Below, piece by piece: positions 12,921 through 27,373 of a DNA stretch of 54,769 bases. Within the stretch, counting starts at the first letter, position 1, and each line of letters starts with the position of its first letter. This DNA comes from Parafrankia elaeagni (lineage in GTDB: Bacteria > Actinomycetota > Actinomycetes > Frankiales > Frankiaceae), in contig NZ_KB893738.1 of NCBI RefSeq assembly GCF_000374165.1, forward strand, positions 1-54,769, given 5' to 3'. A program made the translations under genes and the position numbers. The notes below the pieces were generated by a model. The model was not told where the DNA came from. It made no database searches and saw nothing but the letters and a program-made list of their open reading frames with translations.

Positions 12921-12965
12921 GACAGCGATCTTCACCTCGCCCGCGGCCGGTTCGGGCGCAGCGCG

Positions 12966-13949: not shown

Positions 13950-14720
13950 ATGACCGCACCCGCGGAGTTGTTCGACCTGACCGGCCGGGTCGCGGTGGTC
14001 ACCGGCGGGAGCCGGGGCATCGGCCGGGCCGTCGCCGAAGGGCTGGCGAGGGCTGGTGCGCACGTCGTCGTCGCCAGCCGCAAGCTTGCCGCCTGTGAGA
14101 CCGCGGCGAAGGAGATCGAGGCGGCGACGGGCGGTCGGGCGCTCCCGGTCGCCTGCCACGTCGGTTCGTGGGACGACTGCGACCGGCTGGTCGAGACCGT
14201 CTACGACGAGTTCGGCCGCTGCGACGTGCTGATCAACAACGCCGGCATGTCCCCGCTCTACGAGAGCCTGACCTCCGTCACCAGGGAGCTGTACGACAAG
14301 GTCCATGCCGTCAACGCCAGTGGTCCGTTCCGCCTGTCCGCGCTGGTGGGCGAAAGGATGGCCGCCGGCGACGGCGGGTCGATCGTCAACGTGACGACCG
14401 CGGGGTCGCTGCGCCCGAATCCGAGCGATCTGCCCTACGCGATGGCGAAGGCCGGACTGAACGCGCTGACCCTGGGTCTTGCCGGCTCCTGGGCGCCGAA
14501 GGTCCGGGCCAATCTCGTTCTGCCCGGCGCCTTCGACACCGACATCACCAGGACCTGGGGCGAACAGGCCAGGCAGCAGGCGGCGCGGATCAACCCGATG
14601 GGGCGCATCGGCGTGCCCGCCGACATGGTGGGGGTCTGCCTGTTCCTCGCCAGCGACGCGTCCGGCTATGTCAACGGCGCCCAGATCCTCGTCGACGGCG
14701 GTCTGTTCCGCACTCTCTGA
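13950..14720 (+). CDS. SDR family NAD(P)-dependent oxidoreductase
   Basis: Classical short-chain dehydrogenase/reductase, 256 aa, one Rossmann domain. Motifs: TGGSRGIG cofactor loop (about residues 18-25), NNAG in DVLINNAGMSP, catalytic YAMAK, and the C-terminal GAQILVDGG. The residue 13 before the catalytic Tyr is Thr (NVTTAG) and not Ser, a conservative change that still offers a hydroxyl. The substrate is unknown. It is the first intact gene of the catabolic island and lies behind two A-type promoter sites. A strong terminator follows it. No clear Shine-Dalgarno precedes ATG 13950 (only GGAACCCCGGG), so the start rests on the family N terminus. Confidence 0.92.
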   Translation: MTAPAELFDLTGRVAVVTGGSRGIGRAVAEGLARAGAHVVVASRKLAACETAAKEIEAATGGRALPVACHVGSWDDCDRLVETVYDEFGRCDVLINNAGMSPLYESLTSVTRELYDKVHAVNASGPFRLSALVGERMAAGDGGSIVNVTTAGSLRPNPSDLPYAMAKAGLNALTLGLAGSWAPKVRANLVLPGAFDTDITRTWGEQARQQAARINPMGRIGVPADMVGVCLFLASDASGYVNGAQILVDGGLFRTL

Positions 14721-14838
14721 CAGCTACGGCAACCGCCTGGGGCGAGGAACGAGGCGGCCGCCGACTGTCTGACGGCGCCGGAGCGCGCCATCACGGTGAC
14801 CTGACCGGATAGCTGTGGACCATGGTTGCGTGTGAGCG

Positions 14839-14880
14839 GGCCCGGCGTCCGGCCGTTTCGGTGCGGCCGGACGCCGGGCC
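14839..14880. terminator. Strong bidirectional terminator hairpin
   Basis: A perfect 16-bp G/C stem (14839-14854 with 14865-14880) around a 10-nt loop lies between the convergent SDR and NTF2-like genes. Confidence 0.8.
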
Positions 14881-14926
14881 GGGTGCGCTACCGGCGGGCT
14901 CATTCTCGCCGGCGCGTCGGTCAGGT

Positions 14927-15475
14927 CTACTCGAGACCGTTGTCCCGCAGCACCTTGCCGACGAGCTCCATGTACTCCAGGTGGCCCTTGAACGGGCCGC
15001 GCCTGCCGATGGCGGCTTCCAGGAAGGGACCGTACTCCTCGTCGTTGACGAAGGTCTGCCAGTGCCGGATCTCACCGTTGTCGTTGGTCTCGACGAAGGT
15101 GGTCGAGTGGAAGCCCATCTTCAGTCCGTCCCTGGTATGCCCTTCCCACCGGACACGGGCAACGTACCCGTTGTCGGCTGCCCAGCTGGTGTAGTCGACA
15201 AGCTTCCAGTCCGGAAAGGTGACCGAGTATGCCTTGGCCTCCTGGATGGCTGAGGCGGCTATGGCCTCGAAAATAAGCGAGGCGTCTGCGCCGCCAGAAA
15301 TCTCACCCAGGTCGATCACGTCGTGCCCGGTGAAGTACGGCGACGAGTAGATCGCGTCGGGCGCGAATTTCCAGCTGTCGTAGGTTGCGCCGTCCTTCGT
15401 CCCCTGGTGGAGGTAGGCGTCCCGATAGCTGTCGGCCATGCGCTGATGTAAGGCAATCTTCTCTTCGAGGTTCAT
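14927..15475 (-). CDS. NTF2-like/SnoaL-like protein
   Basis: 182 aa of the nuclear-transport-factor-2 cone fold: an N-terminal helical part, then FAPDAIYSSPYFTG, LVDYTSWAADNGYVARVRWE, GFHSTTFVETNDNGEIRHWQ and a C-terminal extension ending EYMELVGKVLRDNGLE. Members include polyketide cyclases, ketosteroid isomerases, limonene-epoxide-hydrolase types and small dioxygenase subunits, so the chemistry cannot be assigned. ATG 15475 has AGGGA upstream on the minus strand. It is transcribed away from the Rieske gene, with palindromic sites B1 and B2 between them. Two other NTF2-like genes occur in the island (17879, 20944). Confidence 0.85.
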   Translation of the reverse strand: MNLEEKIALHQRMADSYRDAYLHQGTKDGATYDSWKFAPDAIYSSPYFTGHDVIDLGEISGGADASLIFEAIAASAIQEAKAYSVTFPDWKLVDYTSWAADNGYVARVRWEGHTRDGLKMGFHSTTFVETNDNGEIRHWQTFVNDEEYGPFLEAAIGRRGPFKGHLEYMELVGKVLRDNGLE

Positions 15476-16001
15476 CGCGGTCCCTGCTGGTCGTTGGACT
15501 TACAGCCGTCGGCCGGTCGGTCGATCCTGGCCTGCCTGGCTGTCCGGTCGTTGGTCGTGAAGACAATCAATCGATCGTATGATTAACCGTCTGGCGCAGT
15601 GCGTGCAAGAGTTTTCTGGCGTCGAGTCGTCCACGGCGGGCTGCGGCGGCCACCACCTGCGTGGCCCGAAGCGGGGGTTGAACTGTCGGTGGTACGTCAC
15701 GTGCAGTTGGTGACGCTGGGCGAGTCATGAATATGATCATGCCGTCCTGCGAGCTGAGGTCGATGTCGTTGCCGTAGGCCTCGGCGACCTGGATCGGCAG
15801 GTCGATGACGGAGAACGTCGGGCGGGCGACTGCGCGGTCGAGACGGTCCGGAATGTCCGGGCGGCCGTCCGGACAGCCTCCGGAGATACGACATGTCTTC
15901 TTCACCTTGTCCGACGTGGGAACGAGTGGATTGCCGAATCGTTCTCGGTGAGTAGCCGGCTGACCACACGGGATGGTGTCCGGCAAGGGGGACTCCGATG
16001 G
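15476..16001. other. Intergenic region upstream of the NTF2-like gene
   Basis: It holds palindrome B1 close to the NTF2-like start. A minus-strand open frame of 139 codons (15567-15986) shows no family I recognise and has no start or ribosome-site support, so I do not call it. No other feature seen. Confidence 0.45.
15565..15584. promoter_or_regulatory. Palindromic site B1 (candidate TetR operator)
   Basis: A 20-bp imperfect palindrome: AATCA (15565-15569) to TGATT (15580-15584) around CGATCG, matching at 8 of 10 symmetric positions. It lies about 90 bp before the minus-strand NTF2-like gene. Confidence 0.5.
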
Positions 16002-16112
16002 TCAGGTTCGCCGGTCGTCGTTGACGCCGAGGAGCTGCCCGGTGATGCGGGAGGACGCGCCAAGGCCCGACGCCCCTCCGGTCATGATCACGGTGGTCCC
16101 CTCGAAGGGCAT
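16002..16112 (-). pseudogene. 36-codon SDR relic: N terminus joined to C terminus
   Basis: On the minus strand ATG 16112 follows GGAAGGA and reads MPFEGTTVIMTGGASGLGAS, the SDR N terminus with its glycine-rich cofactor loop. It runs in frame into SRITGQLLGVNDDRRT and a stop, matching an SDR C terminus (usually TGQLLGVDGG...). About 210 central residues are missing. It has a start and ribosome site, so a peptide could be made, but it has no catalytic residues. Confidence 0.7.
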
Positions 16113-16178
16113 GGGTGTACGTCCTTCCGGTCGTGGAGGGTGGCTTGACGGCACCCGAGTGTGGCGTGCATCATGTCG

Positions 16179-16198
16179 CTAATCAAGCAATTGGTTAG
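16179..16198. promoter_or_regulatory. Palindromic site B2 upstream of the Rieske gene
   Basis: A 20-bp palindrome CTAATCAAGCAATTGGTTAG, with core AATCAA-N4-TTGGTT, lies in an AT-rich patch about 210 bp before the Rieske start. The core spacing equals that of B3 (AATCAA-N4-TTGATT). Confidence 0.6.
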
Positions 16199-16409
16199 TT
16201 TTCGTTTGCGTCGACGGCGCTGGCTACCCGGCGTCTGGCGTTGCTCTGACATGGACCGCGAGCACCGTGCTCCCGACCGGGCATCCACGGCCACCGCACG
16301 GTAGGTCACTGGTGCGCTCTGTCAGGAAGTGCGGTGGGGCACGCATGCGTACCCCTGCGCGTGAAGTCCTCCTGCCCACTGTTTCCCCCGCTTGAGGAGA
16401 ACTGGACTG

Positions 16410-17780
16410 ATGACGATCGAGGCGACGCGGCCCGGGGAATGGCTCGACGACACGAAGATCGGACTGTCGGGCCTGGATTCCGTCCCGGTCGACTTCCAGT
16501 GGAAGATCCCGACCGAGCGTTACACCTCGCCGGAGATCGCGGCGCAGGAGCGTGAGCTGATCTGGACGAAGACCTGGCAGGTCGTCGGCCGGGTCGGTGC
16601 GTTGGCGAAGGCCGGCGACTGGAAGACCTACCAGCTCTTCGAACAGTCCTTCATCGTGGTACGCGGCCGCGACGACGTGATCCGCGGTTTCGTGAACGCC
16701 TGCCGTCACCGTGGCAACCTGCTGTGCGCGGAGCGATCGGGCACCTCACGGCAGTTCCTCTGCCAGTACCACCTGTGGTCCTATGACCTCGAGGGTAACT
16801 GCCGGGGCATTCTGCGCGAGGGCCTCTCGGGAGTCGACAAGAGCGACGTCTCGCTGGTGCCCGTTCCGGTGGAGACGTTCGGCGGTTTCATCTTCCTCAA
16901 CCCGGACCCGGACGCGAAGCCTCTCGCCGAATACCTCGGTCCCGAGGTCATCGAACTGCTGCGGCCCTACCAGATGGAGCAGTTCATCACCGTCATGGAC
17001 GTCGAGGAGCCTCTCGAATGCAACTGGAAGGTCGTCATGGACGCCTTCCAGGAGGGCTACCACGTCTGGGGCGTCCACCCGCAGCTCCTGAACGTGATCT
17101 ACCCGGACCCGGAGAAGGGCCGCTACCGGTTCCTCGGCGACCACAGCGTCGCCACGACACCGTTCGACGTGCCCAGGGGCGAGCGCTTCGGCCCGGAGGA
17201 GCAGGTCGCCGGGATCCGCAAGCTCCCCGAGACCTTCCCCGCGGTCCCGCTGATGCTGCCTCGTTTCGAGGAGCTCGTCGCCGAGAACCGCGGAGAGGAC
17301 GGCACCCTCGTCTTCCCGGAGGGCGTCACCGCGCGCACGCTGCTGCAGCGGGCCACCCGCGACACACTCACCGGCATGGGCCTGGACGTCAGCGGGCTGA
17401 CGGACAACCAGATGACCGACAACCAGGGCTGGGTCCTCTTCCCGAACTTCTTCATGACGGTCCGCGCCGGCGAATGCCACATCACCATGCCCACGCCGCA
17501 CCCCTCCGGCGACCCGAACAAGTGCGTCTGGCACGTCGCCAGCTACATGTACCTGCCGGCGGAGCTCACCGAAGCCGCGAAGGTGGACCTGACCGTCGTC
17601 AAGGAGCCGGGCAGCCACACCTACTTCGAAGCGCTGCAACAGGACTACGAGCAGATGCAGCGCCAACAGGCCGGCCTGCGAAACAGCCGCCTGGAATACG
17701 AGACGATCACTCGGGAGGAGATCGTCGTCGCGAACTTCCACCGCGTTGTCGACCTGTACCTGGCCGACGCCGAATCCTGA
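16410..17780 (+). CDS. Rieske-type aromatic ring-hydroxylating oxygenase, alpha subunit
   Basis: 456 aa from ATG 16410, chosen over an upstream in-frame ATG (16392) because GAGGAG lies at 16395-16400. The Rieske [2Fe-2S] ligands are Cys98-x-His100 and Cys118-x2-His121 (CRH...CQYH). The mononuclear iron region NWKVVMDAFQEGYHVWGVHP supplies Asp211 (bridge), His218 and His223, and the C-terminal catalytic domain follows. Such enzymes use electrons from a reductase to mono- or dioxygenate rings or demethylate. No beta subunit or dedicated reductase/ferredoxin lies next to it; the NTF2-like protein 98 bp downstream could take a beta-subunit-like role, as ring-hydroxylating beta subunits share that fold. 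Site B2 lies upstream. The substrate is unknown. Confidence 0.93.
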   Translation: MTIEATRPGEWLDDTKIGLSGLDSVPVDFQWKIPTERYTSPEIAAQERELIWTKTWQVVGRVGALAKAGDWKTYQLFEQSFIVVRGRDDVIRGFVNACRHRGNLLCAERSGTSRQFLCQYHLWSYDLEGNCRGILREGLSGVDKSDVSLVPVPVETFGGFIFLNPDPDAKPLAEYLGPEVIELLRPYQMEQFITVMDVEEPLECNWKVVMDAFQEGYHVWGVHPQLLNVIYPDPEKGRYRFLGDHSVATTPFDVPRGERFGPEEQVAGIRKLPETFPAVPLMLPRFEELVAENRGEDGTLVFPEGVTARTLLQRATRDTLTGMGLDVSGLTDNQMTDNQGWVLFPNFFMTVRAGECHITMPTPHPSGDPNKCVWHVASYMYLPAELTEAAKVDLTVVKEPGSHTYFEALQQDYEQMQRQQAGLRNSRLEYETITREEIVVANFHRVVDLYLADAES

Positions 17781-17878
17781 GTGGTGTGGCCGACCCTGAC
17801 CGGTCGGCCGGCGAGACCGGCTGTGGTCCGGCTACACCTGTCCGAAGATTGTCAGCCCCACTACTGGGAGTTATCGAT

Positions 17879-18355
17879 ATGGTGCTCGCGCTGCGCGACC
17901 TTGACGAGGTCATCGGCGACTACACGGGCCTGTCGCGGGTCGTGCTGGAGTACACCCAGCTGATGAAGAAGCTGGTCGACGCGGGCAGGGAGCCCGGGTT
18001 CTCGGTCGACCGTTGGGCGCCGGTCGCCGATCTGGTCGCTGTCGACTCCTTCGAACGGATCGGCCCGTTCAAGGAGACCATGAACTGGTCGGAATACGCC
18101 GCGTTCCTCACCCAGTGGGCACAGACCTCCGCCTGGGAATGCTCGTTCAAGCGGGTCACCGAGGTCGGCAACCTGGTGCTGCTCGAGCTGGAGGAACGCA
18201 GCACGGTCTCCGGATTCAGCAGCGCCGTGAACTCCGCGACGACCTACGAGTTCGACGCGGACGGCAAGGTAGTCCACCTTGCGGTGTACCTGCAGATGCA
18301 ACTGCCCGACCCGGAAACGCTCAAGAGCTACCAGGGCATCCAGATCACGGAGTGA
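17879..18355 (+). CDS. NTF2-like/SnoaL-like protein (possible small subunit)
   Basis: 158 aa from ATG 17879, preceded by GGGAG (17866-17870). Segments VDRWAPVADLVAVDSFERIG, NWSEYAAFLTQWAQ, LVLLELEERSTVSG and TTYEFDADGKVVHLAVYLQM fit the NTF2-like cone fold. It follows the Rieske alpha-subunit gene on the same strand with a 98-bp gap and precedes the carboxymuconolactone-decarboxylase-like gene by 77 bp, so the three probably form an operon. It may stabilise or partner the oxygenase, or act as an isomerase/cyclase. The sequence does not decide. The frame is open for a long way upstream, but that part is a shadow of the Rieske gene. Confidence 0.8.
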   Translation: MVLALRDLDEVIGDYTGLSRVVLEYTQLMKKLVDAGREPGFSVDRWAPVADLVAVDSFERIGPFKETMNWSEYAAFLTQWAQTSAWECSFKRVTEVGNLVLLELEERSTVSGFSSAVNSATTYEFDADGKVVHLAVYLQMQLPDPETLKSYQGIQITE

Positions 18356-18432
18356 CGCGCGTAGCCCGGCACCGCGGCCCGCTGACGGGCTGCGGTGAAC
18401 CGATCCACCCATCTCAGGAAGGGAGTGCTCGC

Positions 18433-19002
18433 ATGGCGCGCATCGAGCCGCTGCGGCCCCGCCAGTTCTCACCGGAGATGCGCTCGGCCCTGGCGGCCAT
18501 GCTCCCACCTGAACCGCGCTATCCCATGCCCAGTGCTGAAGGGCGGCCCAAGGCACTCGGCATGCTGGGGACCTTCGCGCACCACCCCCACCTCGCGCGA
18601 GCGTTCCTCACCTTCAACGGCCAGGTGCTGCTCGCCACGACGCTGAGCCAGCGGCAGCGCGAGATCCTCATCCTGCGGGTCGCCGCACTGCGAGCCTGCG
18701 ACTACCTGTGGGCCGAGCACGTCCACCTCGCGCAGGAGGTGGGGCTCACCGCCGAGGAGATCGGCCGTGTCGCGGCAGGCCCCGCCGAGTCCTTCAACCC
18801 GCTGGATGCCGTGCTGCTGAGCGCCGTTGACGAGATCATCACCGACGGACTGCTCGCGGACGGCACCTGGGCGACCCTCGCCGCCGAACTCGACACCCAG
18901 CAGATACTCGACGTCATCTTCACCATCGGTGCCTACGAGACGGTGTCGGCCATGCTCCGAACCTTCGGCATCGGACTTGACGACGCTCCGGGCCCGTCGT
19001 GA
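18433..19002 (+). CDS. Carboxymuconolactone decarboxylase/AhpD-like family protein
   Basis: 189 aa, all-helical AhpD-like fold. ATG 18433 follows GGAAGGGAG. The family helix REILILRVAALRACDYLWAEHV carries Cys, acidic and His residues in the active-site position; only one Cys of the AhpD CxxC pair is present, so a disulfide-reductase role is unlikely. Residues LTAEEIGRVAAGP and QQILDVIFTIGAYETVSAML are typical of CMD-like proteins in actinobacterial catabolic clusters. It probably acts on an intermediate of the same pathway as the Rieske enzyme, for example lactone decarboxylation or isomerisation; this is inference from context. Confidence 0.85.
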   Translation: MARIEPLRPRQFSPEMRSALAAMLPPEPRYPMPSAEGRPKALGMLGTFAHHPHLARAFLTFNGQVLLATTLSQRQREILILRVAALRACDYLWAEHVHLAQEVGLTAEEIGRVAAGPAESFNPLDAVLLSAVDEIITDGLLADGTWATLAAELDTQQILDVIFTIGAYETVSAMLRTFGIGLDDAPGPS

Positions 19003-19050
19003 CCTTCGGTCGGCCTTCCAGGTGCCGCCAGGGCACGGTGGTCCCTCGGC

Positions 19051-19092
19051 AGTCACGACGGCGGGATCCCGAGTCACGACGGCGGGATCCCG
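19051..19092 (+). repeat. 21-bp tandem duplication upstream of the TetR gene
   Basis: Two identical 21-bp copies (19051-19071 and 19072-19092), each containing GTCACGACGGCGGGATCCC, end 51 bp before the TetR GTG start. They may duplicate a binding site or alter promoter spacing. Confidence 0.85.
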
Positions 19093-19143
19093 TCACCTGG
19101 TGTTCGCGTGCGAGACTGGAGGGAACGACAACCAGGAGAAACA

Positions 19144-19785
19144 GTGGCGAGCACCCCATCGCTGTTGGGCAGGCCGGTCGGCTCCCGAGGCGATCAGACG
19201 AGACAGCGCATTCTTGACGCGACTCTGCGCTGTGTCGCCGAGGTCGGCTACGCGCGCGCCACCATCCGCGAGATCGCCCGGGCGGCCGGCATGACCAGCG
19301 GCAGCCTCTACCACTACTTCCCGAACAAGGCCGAGCTGGTCAAGGAGACCTTTCGTGAGGTCGCGCAGCAGACGGCGCCCCGTTTCGCTCTCGCGGTGGA
19401 AACCGTCGACGGCGTTCTCGACAAGCTCATGGCGGTCCTCGACGAGGCCGACCGGATGGTCCGCGACAACCCCTACGCGGTCCCCTTCGACCGCGCGATC
19501 CGGGTGGAGAGCGCCGCGGACCTGCACCTGGCCGAAGAGAGCGACACCATCGTCACCTCCATCCACCGTGTCGTCATCGAGATTCTGCGCGAGGCCGACG
19601 AGCAGGGAATCCTCACCGACCACGTCGATCTCCAGGCCGCCACGAACGCCATCGACGTACTGCTCATGGGCCTCTACGAACACGCGCTGACCACACCGGC
19701 CGACACATACCACACAACCGTCCACGCCCTGAAACTGCTGATCCGCGGGATGTTCTTCGACCAGGCCCGGCTCTCGACACTCTGA
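19144..19785 (+). CDS. TetR/AcrR family transcriptional regulator
   Basis: 213 aa from GTG 19144 with AGGAG at 19134-19138. The N-terminal domain TRQRILDATLRCVAEVGY, ATIREIARAAGMTSGSLYHY and FPNKAELV is a canonical TetR helix-turn-helix; the C-terminal two thirds is a ligand-binding helical bundle. It lies between the Rieske operon and the SDR/P450 genes on the same strand. The repeated AATCAA-N4-TTGRTT palindromes at 16179 and 19989 (and the weaker B1 at 15565) are good candidates for its operators, so it probably represses the island until a pathway substrate or CoA intermediate binds. Confidence 0.93.
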   Translation: MASTPSLLGRPVGSRGDQTRQRILDATLRCVAEVGYARATIREIARAAGMTSGSLYHYFPNKAELVKETFREVAQQTAPRFALAVETVDGVLDKLMAVLDEADRMVRDNPYAVPFDRAIRVESAADLHLAEESDTIVTSIHRVVIEILREADEQGILTDHVDLQAATNAIDVLLMGLYEHALTTPADTYHTTVHALKLLIRGMFFDQARLSTL

Positions 19786-20185
19786 CGGGGTGTGGCCGCC
19801 CTTCCCGCTGCCTTCCCGCCACCGTCGCCCGGAGTCGCGTTCCCAACCTGGGAGATCGACCACGACAACTGTCGGGTCGGACAGTCGGCGGCGCCGGAGC
19901 GTTGTACCGCTCGTGGCGGAACGGATTGTCTGTCAGGGGTGAACCCCACTGCTTGACAGCGACCGATTATCACATGCACCATGCCATCAATCAATCAGTT
20001 GATTTGGTTCGGGTGTCGATGGCGCTGCCCTTCGACGTCCGGTGCTGGGCTCGCGTAAGCGCGGCTCGTTACTCCGCGTGCCCCGCTGTCCCGCCCGCGA
20101 GACCGTGCCCTTTGTGAGGAGAAGTGGACTGATGAGGACATGAGGACCGGGGCGATCCGACCGATCCGCGAGGAGTTGGGCATCC
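19786..20185. other. 400-bp regulatory gap before the SDR at 20186
   Basis: No gene. It contains palindrome B3 (19989-20004) and, at about 20113-20143, a near copy of the Rieske gene's translation-start leader, including TGAGGAGAA and GGACTGATGA, ending in a three-codon frame (ATG AGG ACA, stop 20141-20143). Confidence 0.55.
19989..20004. promoter_or_regulatory. Palindromic site B3 (candidate TetR operator)
   Basis: AATCAA-TCAG-TTGATT at 19989-20004, arms perfect. It has the same core and spacing as B2 and lies 182 bp before the SDR start. Confidence 0.6.
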
Positions 20186-20932
20186 ATGACGACACGGTTT
20201 GACGGCACGGCCGCGCTGATCACCGGCGCCGGGTCCGGCATGGGCCGCGCGATCACCCTCCGGCTGGCGAGTGAGGGCGCTGCGGTGATGGCGGTCGACA
20301 TCGACGAGGGTGGGCTGGCCGAGACCAGGTTCCTGGCGACCGGAACCGTGTCGGTCCGGGTCGTCGACGTCGCGGACCCCGCCGCGTGCGCCGAGGCTGT
20401 GGCGGCGGCCGTCACCGAGTTCGGCCGGCTCGACGTGCTGGGCAACGTCGCCGGGATCTACGTCCCGGCGCACGTCACCGAGACCAGTGTCGACCTGTAC
20501 CGGCGGACGCTGGCGGTCAACCTCGACGGCCCGTTCTTCCTGTCCCAGGCCGCGATCCCACATCTGGTGGCGGCCGGCGGCTCCATCATCAACATCGCGT
20601 CGAATGCCGGAGTCCAGGGCGTGCCCTACTCTGCCGCCTACGCGGCGAGCAAGGGCGGCCTCATCCAGCTGACCCGGTCGCTCGCGGTGGAGTACATCAA
20701 GACGCCGCTGAGGGTGAACGCGATCGCGCCGGCCGGCACACTGACCAACATCGCCAGGACCGTGAAGTTCCCCGAGGACCGGGACCCGGACCTCGCCCGC
20801 CGGATGGGTGGCTACCGCGGTGTCGCCATGCCGGAGGAGATCGCGGCGCTGTTCGCCTTCCTCGCGTCGAGTGAGGCGAAGTCGATCACCGGTGCTGTCT
20901 ACGCCGTCGACAACGGCCTCACTGCCAGCTGA
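20186..20932 (+). CDS. SDR family oxidoreductase
   Basis: 248 aa. ATG 20186 follows GAGGAG (20169-20174). Cofactor loop TGAGSGMG; acidic VDIDEG after beta-2 suggests NAD(H) preference; NVAG replaces the usual NNAG; the catalytic pair is Ser in NIASNAG and Tyr in SAAYAASK, 13 residues apart; the C terminus is TGAVYAVDNGLTAS. It lies behind palindrome B3 and 11 bp before an NTF2-like gene, so the two are co-transcribed. It probably oxidises a hydroxyl made by one of the oxygenases in the island; the substrate is unknown. Confidence 0.92.
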   Translation: MTTRFDGTAALITGAGSGMGRAITLRLASEGAAVMAVDIDEGGLAETRFLATGTVSVRVVDVADPAACAEAVAAAVTEFGRLDVLGNVAGIYVPAHVTETSVDLYRRTLAVNLDGPFFLSQAAIPHLVAAGGSIINIASNAGVQGVPYSAAYAASKGGLIQLTRSLAVEYIKTPLRVNAIAPAGTLTNIARTVKFPEDRDPDLARRMGGYRGVAMPEEIAALFAFLASSEAKSITGAVYAVDNGLTAS

Positions 20933-20943
20933 GAGGAGCATCG

Positions 20944-21378
20944 GTGGACCTGCAGGCGCTGGCCGACAAGCTCGAGATCCAGGAGCAGTTGGCGCGTTAT
21001 GCCCGTGGCGTGGACACGAACGATTTCGAGCTGTGGAAGTCGGTCTTCACACCCGAGGCGGTCATCGACTACACATCGACGTCAAGCTCGTTGCCTGTTG
21101 CCAAGCGTGACGACATGGCGGTTCTCCTTGAACAGGGCCTGGGCAGGGCGCCCTGGAAGATTCACTACGTCACCAACGTGGAAATCGACCTCGACGGCGA
21201 CCGTGCCAAGGTGATCGCCCAGTTCTACAACCCTATGCAGGTTCCTGGCATGGCCGAGCCGAGCCACTGCGGCGGCTACTACTTCCACGACTTCGTGCGT
21301 ACACCGGACGGCTGGAAGAGCGAAAAACTTGTCGAAGAACTCGTCTGGTTCGTCAACAGACCTGGCGACGGGGGTTGA
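20944..21378 (+). CDS. NTF2-like/SnoaL-like protein
   Basis: 144 aa from GTG 20944 with GAGAGGAGC just upstream. The start LQALADKLEIQEQLARYARG, DTNDFELWKSVFTPEAVIDY, the GRAPWKIHYVTNVEIDLDGD strand and GGYYFHDFVRTPDGWK match the SnoaL-like domain 4 type found with SDRs in actinobacterial degradation clusters. The His/Asp pattern at positions typical for general acid-base chemistry (Asp near residue 24, His near 76) is compatible with isomerase, dehydratase or hydrolase activity. It follows the SDR by 11 bp and precedes the P450 by about 180 bp. Confidence 0.88.
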   Translation: MDLQALADKLEIQEQLARYARGVDTNDFELWKSVFTPEAVIDYTSTSSSLPVAKRDDMAVLLEQGLGRAPWKIHYVTNVEIDLDGDRAKVIAQFYNPMQVPGMAEPSHCGGYYFHDFVRTPDGWKSEKLVEELVWFVNRPGDGG

Positions 21379-21559: not shown

Positions 21560-22843
21560 ATGGTCGACGTCGACTCCATCGACTTCTTCACGGACAACGA
21601 ACTCCTGCACGATCCATATGACTATCTTGCCGCCCTGCGCGGGGAGTGCCCGGTACGCCGGGAGAAGCATCACGACGTGGTGATGGTCACCGCCTACGAC
21701 GAAGCACTCGCGATCTACAACGACACCGACCGGTTCTCGTCATGCCTTTCCGTCACCGGACCGTTCCCGGGCTTTCCGGTGCCTCTCGAGGGTGAGGACC
21801 TCTCGGACCTGATCGCCGAGCACCGCGACAAGCTGCCGATGAGCGATCAGCTGCCGACGCTGGACCCGCCGGTCCACACCGCGCACCGCGCACTGCTGTC
21901 GAAGATGATCACTCCTCGCCGTCTCAAGGAGAACGAGGAGTTCATGTGGCGGCTCGCCGACCGCCAGCTCGACGCGGCGCTGACCGGCGGGCGCTGTGAG
22001 TTCATCCGCGATTTCGCCTCTCCGTTCGCCATGCTCGTCATCGCCGACCTGCTCGGCGTACCGTCGGAGGACCAGCCGGAGTTCGTCCAGCGACTCAACC
22101 GGCCGCACACCGGCACACTGGGCAGCACCGGCGGCGACCCGATGGCACAGTCGCCGTTGGAGTTCCTGTACGAGAAGTTCACCGGCTACATCGAGGACCG
22201 CCGCCGTCACCCGCGCGGCGATGTCCTGACCGGAGTCGCCTCGGCCACGTTTCCCGACGGAAGCACTCCGCCGGTGATCGACGCCGTCTGCGTCGCCGCC
22301 AACCTTTTCGCCGCCGGCCAGGAGACCACGGTCCGGCTTCTCAGCACCGCGGTGATGATGCTCGGCGAGGATCCCGAGCTGCAGACGAGGCTGCGGAACA
22401 ACCGCGACCTGATCCCCAACTTCATCGAGGAGTCCCTTCGCTACGAAAGCCCCATTCGTGGCGACTTCCGCGTGGCGAAGGTCCCGGTCGAGATCGGCGG
22501 AGTGCAGTTCCCCAGCGGCACCATCCTGTTCCTGGCCAACGCCGCGATCAACCGCGACCCGGCCAGGTTCCCCGAGCCCGACACGTTCGACATCGAACGT
22601 GGCAACGCCCGCAGCCACGTCGCGTTCGGCCGCGGCGTCCACAGCTGCCCCGGCGCCCCGCTGGCCCGTGCCGAAGCCCTGGTCAGCCTGCAGCGGCTGT
22701 TCGACCGCACGACGGACATCTGGATCGACGAGGACGAGCACGGCCCCGCCGGAGACCGGCGCTACAGCTACCTGCCCACCTTCATCCTGCGCGGGCTCAC
22801 CAGGCTCCACATCGGGTTCACCTCCGCCGGCGGTGACGCGTGA
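21560..22843 (+). CDS. Cytochrome P450
   Basis: 427 aa from ATG 21560 (AAAGGAAC upstream). It has all P450 landmarks: I-helix AGQETT, ExxR (EESLR), and the heme loop FGRGVHSCPGAPLA with heme-ligating Cys363. The start codon choice rests on the P450 N terminus DFFTDNELLHDPYDYLAALR. It is a soluble bacterial class I enzyme needing a ferredoxin, and one overlaps its 3' end by four bases (GTGA). It resembles the P450 at 37196-38488 over the full length, with shared FPGFPVPLEG, QLPT and AANLFAAGQETTVRLLS blocks, so the two are paralogues with probably similar substrates. It hydroxylates an unknown hydrophobic substrate. Confidence 0.95.
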   Translation: MVDVDSIDFFTDNELLHDPYDYLAALRGECPVRREKHHDVVMVTAYDEALAIYNDTDRFSSCLSVTGPFPGFPVPLEGEDLSDLIAEHRDKLPMSDQLPTLDPPVHTAHRALLSKMITPRRLKENEEFMWRLADRQLDAALTGGRCEFIRDFASPFAMLVIADLLGVPSEDQPEFVQRLNRPHTGTLGSTGGDPMAQSPLEFLYEKFTGYIEDRRRHPRGDVLTGVASATFPDGSTPPVIDAVCVAANLFAAGQETTVRLLSTAVMMLGEDPELQTRLRNNRDLIPNFIEESLRYESPIRGDFRVAKVPVEIGGVQFPSGTILFLANAAINRDPARFPEPDTFDIERGNARSHVAFGRGVHSCPGAPLARAEALVSLQRLFDRTTDIWIDEDEHGPAGDRRYSYLPTFILRGLTRLHIGFTSAGGDA

Positions 22844-23037
22844 CCACCGTGTCGATCGACTCGGAACGCTGCGCCGGCCATGGTGCCTGCGTCACGGTCT
22901 GCCCCGACGCGTTCGCCCTCACCGGCGACGGCTACGCCGAGTTGACCGTCGATCGAATTCCCGAGGAGCTCGTCGAACTCGTGGAACGGGCGGCGGCCCA
23001 GTGCCCGGAGAGAGCGATCCTCCTCGCCGCCCGCTAG
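22840..23037 (+). CDS. Ferredoxin ([3Fe-4S]-type), P450 partner
   Basis: 65 aa from GTG 22840, whose last two bases begin the TGA stop of the P450 (four-base GTGA overlap), so the two are translationally coupled. The cluster-binding pattern is Cys11-x2-His14-x2-Cys17 (CAGHGAC) with distal Cys55 in QCPERAI. His replaces the second Cys of a [4Fe-4S] motif, as in actinobacterial P450-linked ferredoxins. A further Cys21 (VCP) is present. It carries electrons from a reductase, not encoded here, to the P450. Confidence 0.93.
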   Translation: MTTVSIDSERCAGHGACVTVCPDAFALTGDGYAELTVDRIPEELVELVERAAAQCPERAILLAAR

Positions 23038-23134
23038 TCCGGTTCTCGCGCTGGCGTTCGCGGGTCTGCTCGGCCACCCGGCAGTGGGCGGGTGTGGACG
23101 GTGCCGACCAGGTCGGCCTCCACGTCGGTGGTCG

Positions 23135-23160
23135 TAGACAGCTGACTGGGTCAACTATAT
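23135..23160 (+). promoter_or_regulatory. Palindromic operator/promoter, site A3
   Basis: TAGACA (23135-23140), palindrome TGACTGGGTCA (23143-23153), one base, CTATAT (23155-23160). Layout and spacing are the same as in A2 at 13551-13576. It lies about 200 bp before the P450 at 23361. Confidence 0.6.
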
Positions 23161-23246
23161 TCTTGCGATCGCAGGTGGCCGACATCACGCTGCAGAGATT
23201 TGCCCGGCTCTCCGGGGCGCTACAGAGGCCCCGGAGCGACGGCGTC

Positions 23247-23270
23247 GGCGACGGCGACGGCGACGGCGAC
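23247..23270 (+). repeat. Four tandem copies of GGCGAC
   Basis: Simple 6-bp repeat, four exact units, in the leader of the P450 gene at 23361. Confidence 0.85.
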
Positions 23271-23360
23271 GTTGGCAGAGGTCCGCATGATGGCGCCGGT
23301 GACCGAGGCCCGACTGTGGGGCACGGCCGTGTGATCGGCCTGACGGACAAGGAGCGGAGA

Positions 23361-24620
23361 ATGGCTGAGGAATTAGTGGGCGACAGCGCGGCCGTCGAGG
23401 GAAGCCAGGCCCTGGGCGGCACCTACGGCGGTGGCGTTGTCGAGCTGATGACCATCGACGTCGCGAGAGATCCGAAGCCGACCTACCAGGCGCTGAGAGA
23501 GGCCGGTCGAGCGAGGCGGGCGACCGGCATGTTCGGCTCAGCGGTCATTGCCACCGGGCGGCAGGCGGTCGAAGAGATCTTCAAGCGTCCGGATGTGTAC
23601 TCTTCGGCGGCGCATGCCGGCCGCCTCGGCAATGTGCGGCCGCTTATCCCGATCGAGTACGATCCGCCGCAGCAGCGCAAGTACCGCAAGCTCATCAACC
23701 CGATCTTCGCCCCGCAGGCGATCGAACGGTGGGAGGAGCCGGTGCGGAAACTCGTCCACGACCTCGTCGACGATTTCGCCGACGCCGAGGAGATCGACTT
23801 CTCCAGGCAGTTTTCGATCCCCCTGCCGTCCCGGATATTCCTCACCCTGCTTGGGCTGCCACTCGACGACCTGCCCACGTTCCTTCGCCTCAAGGACGGT
23901 ATCGTCCGTCCAGCGGTTCTCCTCGGGCTGCCGGTGAACCATCCGGATGTCTCCGAACTCAAGGCGAGGACCGCTCAGGAGATCTACGCCTACTTCAGTA
24001 ATGTGCTCGACGAGCGGGAGCGGGAGCGGGAGGACGACCTCCTGAGTCACCTGATCGACGCCGAGGTCGACGGCGAGAGGCTGACCCGCGAAGAGCTCCT
24101 TGACATTTGTTTTCTGTTCCTTACCGCCGGCCTTGACACCGTGTCCGCGTCGCTGGACACCTTCATGGCCTATCTTGCCGAGTCCCCCCAGCGCCGCGCC
24201 GAGGTGGTCGCCAACCCAGACAACATCGACAACGTGGTCGAGGAGCTGCTGCGGTGGGAATCTCCGGTGATGCTCGTCACCCGCATGGCCACGAAGGATA
24301 CCGAACTGGCGGGCTGCCCGGTCCACAAGGGCGACGAGATCTATGTGTACATCGGCTCGGCGAATCTCGACGAGGAGGAGCTCGCCGATGCCGGCGAGGT
24401 CCGCTTCGACCGCACGGCCAACCGCCACATCGCCTTCGGTGGCGGGGTGCACCGCTGCCTCGGTTCCCATCTGGCCCGAATGGAACTGCGCGTCGTGCTT
24501 CGTGAATGGCATGCGCGGATCCCCGACTACCGGATCAAGCCGGGAGCCCGGCTCGATTTCACGCCGGGTGTCCGGTCCATCGACTCCTTCCCGATGCTGC
24601 TGGGGGGGAGCGGAGAGTGA
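23361..24620 (+). CDS. Cytochrome P450 (second, distinct subfamily)
   Basis: 419 aa from ATG 23361 with AAGGAG at 23349-23354. Landmarks: I-helix FLTAGLDTVSASLDT, ExxR (EELLR), heme loop FGGGVHRCLGSHLAR with Cys366, and PVHKGDEIYVYIGSANLDEE before it. It is clearly not a close relative of the P450 at 21560, whose heme loop is HSCPGAP. It has no ferredoxin of its own and may share the one at 22840. An A-type promoter precedes it, and an SDR follows 60 bp downstream, suggesting hydroxylation followed by oxidation. The substrate is unknown. Confidence 0.95.
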   Translation: MAEELVGDSAAVEGSQALGGTYGGGVVELMTIDVARDPKPTYQALREAGRARRATGMFGSAVIATGRQAVEEIFKRPDVYSSAAHAGRLGNVRPLIPIEYDPPQQRKYRKLINPIFAPQAIERWEEPVRKLVHDLVDDFADAEEIDFSRQFSIPLPSRIFLTLLGLPLDDLPTFLRLKDGIVRPAVLLGLPVNHPDVSELKARTAQEIYAYFSNVLDEREREREDDLLSHLIDAEVDGERLTREELLDICFLFLTAGLDTVSASLDTFMAYLAESPQRRAEVVANPDNIDNVVEELLRWESPVMLVTRMATKDTELAGCPVHKGDEIYVYIGSANLDEEELADAGEVRFDRTANRHIAFGGGVHRCLGSHLARMELRVVLREWHARIPDYRIKPGARLDFTPGVRSIDSFPMLLGGSGE

Positions 24621-24680
24621 GGGCGCCGCTGCCAGCGCCGTCGAGGGCGGCCACTCCCTCGGTCGCGAGGATGATCCGCA

Positions 24681-25442
24681 ATGTCAGGTAGCCCCGTGCT
24701 GCAGGGAAAGGTCGCTATCGTCACGGGCGCGGGCGGAGGCATTGGCAAGGCCTACGCGAAGGGACTCGCCGAGGCCGGCGCCGCGGTGGTCCTGGCCGAC
24801 ATCAACATCGACAAGGCTCGGACCGCCGCGGAGGAACTGGCCGCCGCCGGGCATCGGGTGCTTGCGGTAGGCACCGACGTCTCCGACGAGACGAGCGCGA
24901 ACGCGATGGCGGCCGCGGCGGCAGAGCACTTCGGCTCGGTGGACATCCTGGTGAACAACGCGGCACTGATGGCCGAAATCGTCGGCCAGGGAACGCTCAC
25001 CACGATGTCGCTCGACATGTGGAACCGCACGATGACCGTGAACCTCACCGGCCCGCTGCTGTGCGTCCGCGCGGTCGTGCCCCACATGAAGAAACAGGGC
25101 TACGGAAAGATCGTGAACCAGTCGTCGGGCGGCGCCTTCATGGCGGCCAATGCCTACGGCATCTCCAAGCTGGGCGTCGTGAGCATGACACTGTCGCTGG
25201 CCCGTGAACTGGCGCCGTTCGGTATCCGGGTGAACGCCATCGCGCCGGGCTACGTCAACACCGAGGCCGGTGCGGTCGCCGCGCCGCCGGCGCTGCGAGC
25301 GATGATCGAGAAGTCGATACCGTTCCCGTTTGGCGAGCCTGAGGAGGTGGTACCAGGCCTGCTCTACCTGGTCGGCCCCGGCAGCGACTGGGTGACCGGC
25401 CACACCCTCAACATCGACGGTGGCTGGATACCGCGCACCTGA
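24681..25442 (+). CDS. SDR family oxidoreductase
   Basis: 253 aa. Cofactor loop TGAGGGIG, Asp in LADINIDK after beta-2 (NAD preference), NNAA in place of NNAG, catalytic Tyr in NAYGISK, C terminus TGHTLNIDGGW. The Ser-Tyr spacing (SSGGAFMAANAY) is 10-11 residues and not the usual 13, so the active-site loop is short. ATG 24681 has GAGGAT upstream. It is 60 bp after the P450 at 23361 and before the EthD-like gene, in one probable transcription unit. Confidence 0.92.
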   Translation: MSGSPVLQGKVAIVTGAGGGIGKAYAKGLAEAGAAVVLADINIDKARTAAEELAAAGHRVLAVGTDVSDETSANAMAAAAAEHFGSVDILVNNAALMAEIVGQGTLTTMSLDMWNRTMTVNLTGPLLCVRAVVPHMKKQGYGKIVNQSSGGAFMAANAYGISKLGVVSMTLSLARELAPFGIRVNAIAPGYVNTEAGAVAAPPALRAMIEKSIPFPFGEPEEVVPGLLYLVGPGSDWVTGHTLNIDGGWIPRT

Positions 25443-25527
25443 CGCAGTCCTCGCCCCGGCGGCGCCGTCAAGCGGCGTCCCCGTGCGACCCCCGACAGAC
25501 CTCTGGATGCCGAGAAACGAGAAGATT

Positions 25528-25881
25528 GTGACGAACGACCAGCTCCCGCGCTGGATCCTGCACGTCGAGTCGGGGCCGGTGAGCCGGGACCCGGAGACGG
25601 TCGCCGAGTTCAACCGCTGGTACAACGAGGTGCACGTCCCGGAGATGGTCGCCTTCGAGGGCTATCTCTCGGGTCGCCGGCTCGAGCCGGTCGACGACGA
25701 CGGCCCGTACATCGCGCAGTACGTGATCGAGGGGGATCCGGAAGAGATCCTCGCTCGCGTGAAGACCGCCTCCGCCGCCGGCGAGCTAAAAATGTCCGAG
25801 ACTCTGCAGATGAATCCGACCCCGAAAATGCGGCTCATGCGGGTCTCGTTCGAATACGAAAGGTCAGGTACGGAGGCCTGA
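25528..25881 (+). CDS. EthD-like/dimeric alpha-beta barrel protein
   Basis: About 117 aa from GTG 25528; ATG 25507 and a more upstream start in the same frame are alternatives, and the ribosome site (purine-rich GAGAAACGAGAAG) does not decide. The segment ETVAEFNRWYNEVHVPEMVA followed by GYLSGRRLEPV and PYIAQYVIEGD has the beta-alpha-beta pattern of small ferredoxin-like-fold proteins (EthD/DUF4286-like) found beside P450s and SDRs. These can be monooxygenases, dehydrochlorinase-like enzymes or accessory proteins. It lies 85 bp after the SDR and 187 bp before the amidohydrolase. Confidence 0.75.
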   Translation: MTNDQLPRWILHVESGPVSRDPETVAEFNRWYNEVHVPEMVAFEGYLSGRRLEPVDDDGPYIAQYVIEGDPEEILARVKTASAAGELKMSETLQMNPTPKMRLMRVSFEYERSGTEA

Positions 25882-26068
25882 GCGGCCCGGATCGCTCTGG
25901 GGCACCAGCCTGGCCACAAGGGCAGTAGTTCCGGTGCGGCCGCGCTGCAGTGGACTCCTCGGAGTAACGGACAAGGTCCCTCTCGGCCAGGAGGCTGACC
26001 AGCGGAGCCCCAGCTCGGGCCGCTGGGGCTGGTCGGCCGTGCCGGGTATCAGGTAGGAGGAAAGCGTC

Positions 26069-27373
26069 ATGAATCTTGACGAGATGATCCTGATCAGTGT
26101 GGACGATCATGTCATCGAGCCCCCGGACATGTTCGTCGGCCGGCTGCCGAAGGAGTACGAGGCCGACGCGCCCCAGCTGGTGCACCGGGAGGACGGAACC
26201 GACGTCTGGAAGTTCCGCGACACCGTGATCCCGAACGCCGCGCTCAACGCGATCGCCGGCCGACCCAAGGAGGAGTACGGCCTCGAGCCGCAGGGCCTCG
26301 ACGAGGTCCGCCCCGGCTGCTATGACGTGCACGAACGGGTCAAGGACATGAACGCCGGCGGCCTGCTGGCCCAGATGAACTTCCCGTCGTTCCCGGGCTT
26401 CGCCGGCCGGCTGTTCGTCACCGAGGACGTCGACTTCTCGCTGGCGCTGGTCCGCGCCTACAACGACTGGCACGTCGAGGACTGGTGCGGCGCCTACCCG
26501 GGTCGGTTCATCCCGATGACGATCCCGGTCATCTGGGACGCGGAGCTGTGCGCGGCGGAGGTGCGGCGCAACGCCGCGCGCGGCGTCCACTCGCTGACGT
26601 TCAGCGAGAACCCGGCCGTCATGGGTATGCCGAGCTTCCACGACGAGTTCTGGAACCCATTGTGGAAGGCGTTGTGCGACACGAACACGGTGCTGTCGAT
26701 CCACATAGGTTCGTCCGGGCGGATCACGGTGCCCGCGGTGGACTCGCCGCCCGACGTCATGATGACGCTGCAGCCGATGAACATCGTCTCGGCCGCGGCG
26801 GATCTGCTGTGGTCCCGGGTCATCAAGGACTTCCCGGACCTCAGGATCGCGCTGTCCGAGGGTGGCACGGGCTGGATCCCGTACTTCCTGGAGCGGGCTG
26901 ACAAGACGTACGACACGCACGCTACCTGGACCATGCAGGACTTCGGTGGCAAGAAGCCGTCCGACGTCTTCCGTGAGCACTTTCTGACCTGCTTCATCAC
27001 CGACTCGCTGGGGGTCGGACTGCGGCACGAGATCGGCATCGACAACATCAGCTGGGAGTGCGACTACCCGCACAGCGACTCGGCGTGGCCCAACGCCCCC
27101 GAGGAGCTGTGGGCGGACTTCCAGAAGTGGAACGTCCCGGGCGACGAGATCAACAAGATCACTTACCAGAACGCGATGCGCTGGTACTCGTTCGACCCCT
27201 TCGCGCACGTCACGAAGGAGGAGGTGACTGTCGGCGCGCTGCGCAGGGCGGCCGAGGGGCACGACATCAGCGTCAAGCCGCGTAGCCATCAGGTCATCCA
27301 GCCACAGGACAAGCTCAAGCAGTTCCGCCTGCGCGCTCGGGCAGCCGTCGCCGGAACCACGACCAGCCGGTAA
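26069..27373 (+). CDS. Amidohydrolase family 2 (ACMSD-type) metal-dependent hydrolase or decarboxylase
   Basis: 434 aa. ATG 26069 follows TAGGAGGAAAG. The N-terminal SVDDHVIEPPDMF (a DxHxxEP variant of the family metal motif), NWDxH-like YNDWHVEDW, IPMTIPV, LSIHIGSSG (metal His), LRIALSEGGTGWIPYFLE and WECDYPHSDSAWP (catalytic Asp region) are the landmarks of amidohydrolase-2 TIM-barrel enzymes, which cleave C-C bonds by decarboxylation or hydrolyse ring or side-chain bonds. The C terminus has a long extension after FDPFAHV. It probably performs a late step of the island's pathway. It is the last gene of the rightward series, and a hairpin follows. Confidence 0.9.
   Translation: MNLDEMILISVDDHVIEPPDMFVGRLPKEYEADAPQLVHREDGTDVWKFRDTVIPNAALNAIAGRPKEEYGLEPQGLDEVRPGCYDVHERVKDMNAGGLLAQMNFPSFPGFAGRLFVTEDVDFSLALVRAYNDWHVEDWCGAYPGRFIPMTIPVIWDAELCAAEVRRNAARGVHSLTFSENPAVMGMPSFHDEFWNPLWKALCDTNTVLSIHIGSSGRITVPAVDSPPDVMMTLQPMNIVSAAADLLWSRVIKDFPDLRIALSEGGTGWIPYFLERADKTYDTHATWTMQDFGGKKPSDVFREHFLTCFITDSLGVGLRHEIGIDNISWECDYPHSDSAWPNAPEELWADFQKWNVPGDEINKITYQNAMRWYSFDPFAHVTKEEVTVGALRRAAEGHDISVKPRSHQVIQPQDKLKQFRLRARAAVAGTTTSR

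What the first reader, a model, noticed from the sequence alone, without database searches (positions are those of the whole stretch)
13950..27373. Possibly undescribed oxygenase-rich degradation pathway
One Rieske oxygenase without usual beta subunit, two unrelated P450s (one with a coupled ferredoxin), three NTF2-like proteins, a CMD-like protein, four SDRs (one relic), an EthD-like protein and an ACMSD-type amidohydrolase are interleaved on 13 kb under shared operators. No thiolase, CoA ligase or extradiol dioxygenase is present, so it is not a standard beta-oxidation or catechol route. A cyclic, probably oxygenated or alicyclic/terpenoid/lignan-like substrate with stepwise hydroxylation, oxidation and decarboxylation is plausible.
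Basis: inference. Interest (0 to 1): 0.75.

Follow-up and report, generated by a model that had tools for sequence, protein, structure and literature searches.

The report
Oxygenase gene module with matched switch
A bacterium of the Frankia family carries a set of oxygen-using enzyme genes, apparently for breaking down some ring-shaped compound, together with its own regulator; the set recurs in many other bacteria, and the regulator and the DNA site it seems to bind have changed together more than once in evolution.

Summary
Module A (14.9-23.0 kb) holds a Rieske oxygenase, three small SnoaL/NTF2-like candidates, a CMD-like protein, a TetR, an SDR and a CYP150-type P450 with its ferredoxin; much of it recurs in Frankiaceae, Actinomadura, Nocardia and many mycobacteria. 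Three copies of one palindrome (AATCAA-N4-TTGATT) lie before its transcription units. Across 79 related loci regulator and operator match: 19/19 TetR-I loci carry site I, 52/52 TetR-II loci carry a different palindrome, none the wrong one; the tree needs four switches, two forced by well-supported branches. The Rieske has an unrecognised small partner gene (NTF2b): within 1.2 kb downstream in 74/79 loci, and among 396 actinobacterial genomes both occur in the same five. Module B (P450-SDR-EthD-like-amidohydrolase) is separable, lacks the operator, and its amidohydrolase is nearest DitZ and PtmU3 (a C-H hydroxylase), not ACMSD. The substrate (hydrophobic, cyclic, perhaps terpenoid) is inferred only. 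Ten open-access full-text searches found no description of the set. New variant of a known kind.

The parts
13950..14720 (+). SDR1 (short-chain dehydrogenase), module B type
   Evidence: PF13561/PF00106; beside P450b in G030 and G035
14927..15475 (-). NTF2a, small SnoaL/NTF2-like candidate, module A
   Evidence: No Pfam match itself, weak SnoaL_2 in 4 of 20 members; homologue at 40% or more in 57 of 80 related loci
15569..15584 (.). Operator site I (10 of 12 conserved positions), about 94 bp before NTF2a
   Evidence: G019 also has a site before NTF2a
16002..16112 (-). SDR relic, 36 codons: N-terminal 18 + C-terminal 18 residues
16181..16196 (.). Operator site I (11 of 12), 229 bp before the Rieske gene
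16410..17780 (+). Rieske non-heme iron oxygenase, alpha-type; Rieske ligands C98/H100/C118/H121, candidate iron ligands H218/H223/D412 with E215
   Evidence: invariant in 8 orthologues; positions; ligand roles assigned from general knowledge of the family
17879..18355 (+). NTF2b, SnoaL_2-like small protein, dedicated partner gene of the Rieske
   Evidence: 74 of 79 loci; same 5 of 396 genomes
18433..19002 (+). CMD-like protein (start uncertain)
   Evidence: PF02627
19108..19785 (+). TetR-I regulator (true start uncertain)
   Evidence: PF00440; matched to site I
19989..20004 (.). Operator site I (12 of 12), 197 bp before SDR2
20186..20932 (+). SDR2
20944..21378 (+). NTF2c, SnoaL_4 protein
21560..22843 (+). 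P450a, CYP150-type cytochrome P450
   Evidence: PF00067; 55% identical to CYP150A6, PDB 6dcd
22840..23037 (+). Ferredoxin with CxxHxxC...CP motif, probable GTG start overlapping the P450a stop
   Evidence: PF13459; sequence; motif as Fdx8 of M. marinum
23361..24620 (+). P450b, nearest solved relatives CYP101/P450cam, module B (start uncertain)
24681..25442 (+). SDR3, module B
25507..25881 (+). EthD-like small protein (no Pfam support; start uncertain), module B
   Evidence: conserved between SDR3 and AmdH
26069..27373 (+). AmdH, PF04909 protein of the DitZ/PtmU3 branch, candidate dinuclear-metal oxygenase, module B
   Evidence: D12/H14/E17/H212/E264/D332/H335 kept in DitZ and PtmU3

Best explanation
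The region joins two gene modules. Module A is an inducible, locally regulated oxidation module. TetR-I probably represses it by binding TAATCAA-N4-TTGATTA palindromes before NTF2a, before Rieske-NTF2b-CMD-TetR and before SDR2-NTF2c-P450a-ferredoxin, and lets go when a substrate-like effector appears (regulator-site match shown by comparison; binding, repression and effector inferred). The Rieske oxygenase probably works with NTF2b, and perhaps NTF2a, as dedicated small partner (gene pairing shown, physical complex inferred). P450a, fed by its CxxHxxC ferredoxin, hydroxylates; SDRs oxidise alcohols to ketones; SnoaL-like and CMD-like proteins isomerise, hydrate or cleave products (inferred from families). 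Module B (P450b-SDR3-EthD-like-AmdH) is a second oxidation unit whose amidohydrolase-fold enzyme probably hydroxylates C-H bonds with O2 like PtmU3 rather than decarboxylating (inferred). The substrate is most likely a hydrophobic cyclic compound, perhaps a terpenoid; lower steps are probably CoA-based and encoded elsewhere (inferred).
For: Regulator and site: 19/19 loci with TetR-I have site I within 330 bp before the Rieske; 2 of the 60 others do, one (L083) on a contig ending just after the Rieske, one (L058) on a 15 kb locus. 52/52 loci with TetR-II have site II; no locus has the wrong site (79 loci). Null in random windows of the same loci: 3 of 1788 and 10 of 1793. Labelled by site, with rows lacking a site left out, the Rieske tree needs 4 changes, 2 of them forced by well-supported branches, 3-4 in the bootstrap range. 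Genomes outside the 80-locus set agree, 5 of 5: G019, G029, G031 (TetR-I/site I; seen already, before thresholds were set), G073 (TetR-I/site I) and G435 (TetR-II/site II), both looked at afterwards. Own genome: three places at one mismatch or less, two of them here. Partner gene: 74 of 79 loci; the same 5 of 396 genomes. P450a 55% to CYP150A6; M. marinum CYP150A5 with Fdx8 turns beta-ionone into 4-hydroxy-beta-ionone (PMC6237146, passages). AmdH: DitZ 365 bits, about 44%; PtmU3 109 bits; the proteins of 8SM7 and 8SM6 (SfbO) 48 and 44 bits; PtmU3, AibH2 and SfbO are described as dinuclear oxygenases of PF04909 (PMC10811679, parts 1-2 of 3). Module B as its own run in G019, G031, G028.
Against: No expression, binding or substrate data. 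Whether TetR-I represses or activates is not shown. Consensus and thresholds for the sites were set after seeing the loci, and related loci are not independent. NTF2b shows no profile similarity to true beta subunits (probability 0.1%, NTF2a 7.9%, NTF2c as positive control 96%), so a complex rests on gene pairing alone; five loci lack NTF2b within reach (L032, L035, L101, L102, L108), and G435 has one copy away from any Rieske. The 80 loci were chosen by two peptide patterns, so sampling is not even. CYP150 is also proposed for pyrene (PMC10301208, passages), which points to aromatics. AmdH metal content is untested, and 4dzi (labelled a putative hydrolase) shares the DxHxxE motif. No ferredoxin reductase or CoA gene was identified in the region.
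Confidence: 0.6

Rival explanations
1. One single 13-kb catabolic pathway for one substrate, with both modules acting in sequence.
For: Adjacent in the window and in G035; homologues of AmdH (40% or more) and EthD-like (35% or more) lie in 14 and 12 of 80 module A loci.
Against: Apart in G019 and G031, B alone in G028, A without close P450b in G017, G029, G034; no site I in five module B stretches from four genomes.
Confidence: 0.25
2. Module A detoxifies or degrades aromatic or polycyclic aromatic compounds; the CYP150-type P450 and Rieske attack the ring.
For: cyp150 proposed for pyrene breakdown in nid-less Mycolicibacterium austroafricanum (PMC10301208, passages); module carriers include M. 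pyrenivorans, M. vanbaalenii, M. austroafricanum.
Against: No extradiol or intradiol dioxygenase identified in the range; no PF00866 beta; carriers also include Frankia strains and mycobacteria known from the clinic (names; clinical origin recalled).
Confidence: 0.25
3. Steroid or bile-acid side branch: Rieske as a KshA-like hydroxylase, NTF2-like proteins as ketosteroid isomerases, SDRs as hydroxysteroid dehydrogenases.
For: Family-level resemblance; weak matches of the TetR to KstR (50 bits, cut-off 280) and of the Rieske to a 4beta-methylsterol monooxygenase model (29 bits, cut-off 600).
Against: Best Rieske matches are glycine betaine/carnitine oxygenases and aromatic dioxygenases; no KshA among the hits listed there.
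Confidence: 0.12
4. Tailoring genes of natural-product biosynthesis rather than catabolism, next to the PKS at the left end of the window.
For: PKS gene and thioesterase at 39-7813; PtmU3 and many P450s act in biosynthesis.
Against: The PKS lies over 6 kb away with unrelated genes between; module A genes recur in dozens of loci. Whether PKS genes lie near those was not tested.
Confidence: 0.1

Closest known systems
dit cluster for abietane diterpenoids (Pseudomonas abietaniphila, Paraburkholderia xenovorans)
   Same: P450 plus ring-hydroxylating oxygenase plus dehydrogenases; AmdH is nearest to a protein deposited as DitZ (PDB 8uyr)
   Different: dit has a ring-hydroxylating dioxygenase, a putative ring-cleavage dioxygenase and a sterol-carrier-like protein (PMC13063091, passages; CoA genes recalled); no ring-cleavage gene identified here. 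That 8uyr DitZ belongs to this cluster is assumed from its name
CYP150A5-Fdx8 and CYP150A6 of Mycobacterium marinum
   Same: P450a 55% to CYP150A6; adjacent ferredoxin with CxxHxxC motif
   Different: Here tied to a Rieske, NTF2-like proteins and a TetR; the M. marinum gene neighbourhood was not examined
Amidohydrolase-related dinuclear oxygenases (PtmU3, AibH2, SfbO)
   Same: PF04909; AmdH aligns with PtmU3 over 343 residues and keeps the D/H/E/H/E/D/H positions
   Different: Metal and activity of AmdH untested; no small Rieske ferredoxin gene identified next to it
Rv3160c-Rv3161c (TetR-controlled Rieske oxygenase of Mycobacterium tuberculosis)
   Same: TetR binding palindromic repeats before a Rieske gene (PMC7810876, passages)
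   Different: Two-gene operon; orthology to this Rieske and likeness of the palindromes not tested
Aromatic-ring-hydroxylating dioxygenases (alpha3beta3)
   Same: Rieske + PF00848 alpha subunit with a small gene of SnoaL-like type downstream
   Different: Small gene shows no profile similarity to PF00866 beta subunits

Membership tests
Rieske non-heme iron oxygenase (alpha) | PF00355 and PF00848 domains, CxH...CxxH Rieske motif | tested here: met
   C98-x-H100 and C118-xx-H121 invariant in 8 orthologues
Rieske non-heme iron oxygenase (alpha) | 2-His-1-carboxylate iron site and bridging acid | tested here: met
   H218, H223, D412, E215 invariant in 8 orthologues; motif level only, roles recalled
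Alpha3beta3 ring-hydroxylating dioxygenase | PF00866 beta subunit beside alpha | tested here: not met
   No PF00866 hit on contig C69; NTF2b vs set of 8 beta sequences 0.1%, NTF2c positive control 96%
CYP150 | More than 40% identity to a CYP150 member (naming rule, recalled) | tested here: met
   231 of 422 aligned residues with CYP150A6
CYP101 | More than 40% identity to a CYP101 member (recalled rule) | tested here: inconclusive
   P450b best hits are P450cam at about 190 bits, identity not computed
P450 ferredoxin of CxxHxxC type | CxxHxxC(X)nCP motif, next to a P450 | tested here: met
   CAGHGAC ... QCP in the translation; Fer4_15; motif definition from PMC6237146
ACMSD-type decarboxylase | HxH metal motif at the first strand (recalled); closest relatives decarboxylases | tested here: not met
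   D12-x-H14 in place of HxH; DitZ 365 and PtmU3 109 bits against 33 bits for the best LigW-type decarboxylase
Amidohydrolase-related dinuclear oxygenase | Dinuclear metal site with three His and carboxylates | tested here: inconclusive
   Candidate ligands kept in DitZ and PtmU3; metal content not testable here
Amidohydrolase-related dinuclear oxygenase | O2-dependent C-H hydroxylation | not testable with these tools
   -
EthD family | EthD Pfam domain | tested here: not met
   No EthD match up to E 0.5
TetR-operator pair | Regulator co-occurs with a specific palindrome at its targets | tested here: met
TetR-operator pair | The regulator binds the palindrome | not testable with these tools

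The most novel reading that the evidence does not exclude
This Rieske family uses an unrecognised kind of small subunit (NTF2b, with NTF2a as a possible second one) unrelated in sequence to known beta subunits, and three different O2-activating chemistries (Rieske iron, heme P450, dinuclear amidohydrolase-fold metal) act on one cyclic terpenoid-like substrate in a pathway shared by Frankiaceae and environmental mycobacteria, whose switch (regulator and operator together) has been exchanged more than once, probably three or four times.
Probability: 0.25. Interest if true: 0.68.

Novelty: new variant of a known kind. Interest (0 to 1): 0.5.

Why it matters
It turns a vague 'oxygenase-rich' stretch into a defined, widespread module with a testable switch: two regulator-operator pairs that can be read off the DNA, a candidate new small subunit for Rieske oxygenases, and an amidohydrolase that is probably an oxygenase. 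The operator gives an assay for the inducer, and hence a way to the unknown substrate.

Tried and rejected
Rejected: NTF2b as a diverged PF00866 beta subunit by sequence. The first comparison used 13 sequences, at least 4 of them wrong extractions; the repeat with 8 gave the same answer (NTF2b 0.1%, NTF2a 7.9%, CMD as negative control 0.1%, NTF2c 96%). Rejected: ACMSD-type decarboxylase. Rejected: EthD by Pfam. Rejected: one operon of 13 kb. Led nowhere: plasmid searches (55 records, best about 31% identical to the Rieske; three P450a relatives of 41-55%); paralogue regions of the own genome (SDR2, NTF2c and CYP150-like paralogues, no site I); PDB search with the NTF2b profile (no relevant match); literature for DitZ (nothing relevant in the 20 listed) and for a described cluster (listings and starts of abstracts). 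Read: parts 1-2 of 3 of PMC10811679; passages of PMC10401708, PMC6237146, PMC13063091, PMC10710418, PMC10301208, PMC9956245, PMC8540908, PMC7810876. Rfam, padloc and phrogs were not used.

Corrected on checking: a first tree count forced four changes of the TetR-I label, but the label 'none' had been given to L083, whose contig is cut off and whose Rieske is identical to that of a TetR-I locus, and to L058, which carries site I. Relabelled by site the forced number is 3 with all rows and 2 with only rows that have a site; the best tree needs 4 in both cases.

Rows dropped: leave out 1 of 80 loci (less than 330 bp before the Rieske); one search counts 79 of 80 (room downstream) for the NTF2b neighbour; the trees have 81 rows (80 loci and the window), the second tree has 74 (7 without a site dropped). 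The 80 loci are the best of 105 relatives found by two peptide patterns. NTF2b alignment A2 holds the window and 35 of 40 homologues listed after redundancy removal, from 51 found.


Full report
What is there. The window is a whole contig (C69) of a 7.6 Mb genome in 135 contigs. Codon-position GC, Pfam and orthologues give the genes in the parts list. The genome holds many oxygenases (18 Rieske-domain matches; 39 P450 match segments), so a dense patch is by itself not striking; conservation is what makes it more than chance.

Conservation of module A. In 36 genomes of the family, 8 (own included) have the Rieske at 76-100% identity. NTF2b follows it in 7 of these 8, CMD lies near in 7 of 8, and a TetR homologue of 63% or more in all 8; SDR2, NTF2c, P450a, ferredoxin and NTF2a come and go or change order. 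A scan of GTDB genomes with the 8-sequence alignment found 105 relatives by two peptide patterns and kept the best 80: Frankia, Parafrankia, Actinomadura, Nocardia, Williamsia, Aldersonia, many Mycobacterium, Mycolicibacterium and Mycolicibacter, and a few Sphingomonadales. Anywhere on these 80 loci (up to 10 kb each side), homologues of NTF2b (35% or more) are in 73, NTF2a (40%) 57, CMD (28%) 43, P450a (55%) 38, TetR (40%) 21, ferredoxin (40%) 17, NTF2c (40%) 15, AmdH (40%) 14, EthD-like (35%) 12; SDR2, SDR1, SDR3 and P450b at 50% or more in 3, 3, 2 and 1. The identity limits are my choice.

The Rieske and its small neighbour. NTF2b lies on the same strand within 1.2 kb downstream in 74 of 79 loci with room (no identity limit), either directly after the Rieske or, as a rule, after NTF2a; missing in L032, L035, L101, L102, L108. 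In 396 genomes of the phylum, the NTF2b model (E up to 1e-6) hits 5 genomes and the Rieske model (E up to 1e-90) the same 5; in each, one NTF2b copy lies 0.1-0.6 kb downstream of the Rieske. Only up to 4 (Rieske) or 9 (NTF2b) candidates per genome were scored, and two of the five are genomes of the 80-locus set (L040, L081). One extra NTF2b copy in G435 stands away from a Rieske, and the Rieske-side copy there carries a stop; G073's Rieske reads in two frames. NTF2b is SnoaL_2-like at best (20 of 36 members) and shows no profile similarity to true beta subunits, while NTF2c does. So the pairing is strong and the 'beta subunit' reading is a hypothesis.

The switch. A palindrome AATCAA-N4-TTGATT stands before the Rieske, before NTF2a and before SDR2 in the window (16181, 15569, 19989; 11, 10 and 12 of 12 positions). 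In the own genome only three places match with up to one mismatch, two of them here; the backward control pattern matched one place. Across 79 loci: TetR-I homologue (45% or more over 150 residues) and site I together 19, TetR-I without site 0, site without TetR-I 2 (L083, whose contig ends just after the Rieske, and L058, a 15 kb locus), neither 58 (Fisher p 2e-16, which ignores relatedness). Of the 58, 52 carry another TetR (TetR-II, 33% to TetR-I over 91 residues) and a different palindrome, TATACA-N4-TGTATA, often as a tandem pair; TetR-II is divergent from the Rieske in 44 of 53 loci. The table is clean: TetR-I/site I 19, TetR-II/site II 52, no TetR of either kind 8 (2 of them with site I), no mixed case. 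Random windows of the same loci reach the thresholds in 3 of 1788 and 10 of 1793. On a maximum-likelihood tree of the Rieske a site I clade of mycobacteria is nested among site II ones, apart from Frankiaceae with Actinomadura and from Nocardia; with rows that lack a site left out, the best tree needs 4 changes, at least 2 forced by well-supported branches, 3-4 in the bootstrap range. So regulator and operator changed together more than once. Genomes not in the 80-locus set agree: G019, G029, G031 (TetR-I, site I; already seen), G073 (TetR-I, site I) and G435 (TetR-II, site II); G368 and G404 are the same as L040 and L081 and do not count. Where NTF2a stands apart from the Rieske it can have its own site: site I in the window and G019 (and a 12-base variant 81 bp before it in G017), site II in loci such as L049, L072, L073, L080, L082, L088, so NTF2a belongs to the core.

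Module B. P450b (75-100%) and the EthD-like protein (84-100%) occur in the same 6 of 36 family genomes (own, G019, G028, G030, G031, G035). P450b-SDR3-EthD-AmdH run in that order in G019, G028 and G031, with AmdH 89-92% identical, and none of five module B stretches (four genomes) has site I. Linkage to module A is seen only in the window and G035; in G030 the genes are on several contigs. In the window module A sits between SDR1 and P450b, which are neighbours in G030 and G035.

What the enzymes suggest. P450a is 55% identical to CYP150A6. The next gene is a ferredoxin with the CxxHxxC motif, the pairing described for CYP150A5 and Fdx8 of M. [quoted passage not shown] P450b's nearest solved relatives are P450cam. 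AmdH is nearest DitZ and then PtmU3; PF04909 includes dinuclear oxygenases such as PtmU3, AibH2 and SfbO (PMC10811679, parts 1-2 of 3). A few NTF2b homologues touch limonene-epoxide hydrolase weakly (3 of 36, best E 0.05). These pointers lean to terpenoid-like substrates; CYP150 has also been proposed for pyrene (PMC10301208, passages). Substrate and order of steps are inference.

Known or new. Ten full-text searches of the open-access library gave no description of this module among the papers listed; subscription papers are not covered. Nearest described circuit: Rv3160c-Rv3161c, a TetR on palindromic repeats before a Rieske gene (PMC7810876, passages); orthology not tested.

Verdict. Ordinary parts in an unreported, recurrent arrangement with a matched switch; one cryptic partner gene and one probable misnaming (amidohydrolase) make it worth following.

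Noticed in passing
window 37199-38560 (-): A second CYP150-like P450 (73% DNA identity to P450a), with further such paralogues on C59 and C50 of the same genome.
   Followed up: partly
window 16393-16416 and 20115-20138: Nearly identical 24-base leaders (92%) before the Rieske and SDR2 genes, each downstream of a site I; looks like a duplicated promoter-leader cassette.
   Followed up: no
window 19051-19092: Exact 21-base tandem duplication between the CMD and TetR genes.
   Followed up: no
window 11136-12935 (-): 599-residue protein with two GntR and two FCD domain matches; homologue (62-64%) near P450b in G030 and G035, so perhaps linked to module B.
   Followed up: partly
window 39-7813 (+): PKS module with thioesterase and a second thioesterase gene at the left end of the contig.
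   Followed up: no
L099 7964-11775: Novosphingobium beihaiensis carries two Rieske-NTF2b pairs in tandem.
   Followed up: no
L210 and L209 (G435); L213 (G073): NTF2b next to the Rieske has an in-frame stop in G435, which has a second copy without a stop elsewhere; the Rieske of G073 reads in two frames.
   Followed up: partly
paper PMC13063091: Pseudomonas abietaniphila makes 5-hydroxy-dehydroabietic acid by an unknown enzyme (passages); DitZ, as a PtmU3 relative, would be a candidate (my inference).
   Followed up: no
L131, L132, L134, L136: AmdH homologues of 72-74% sit in another cluster with a Rieske (27-40%); some also hold a CYP150-like P450 (61%) with ferredoxin, a CMD-like gene or a SnoaL-like gene, and apparent acyl-CoA dehydrogenase and thiolase genes (by eye): a possible sister pathway.
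   Followed up: partly
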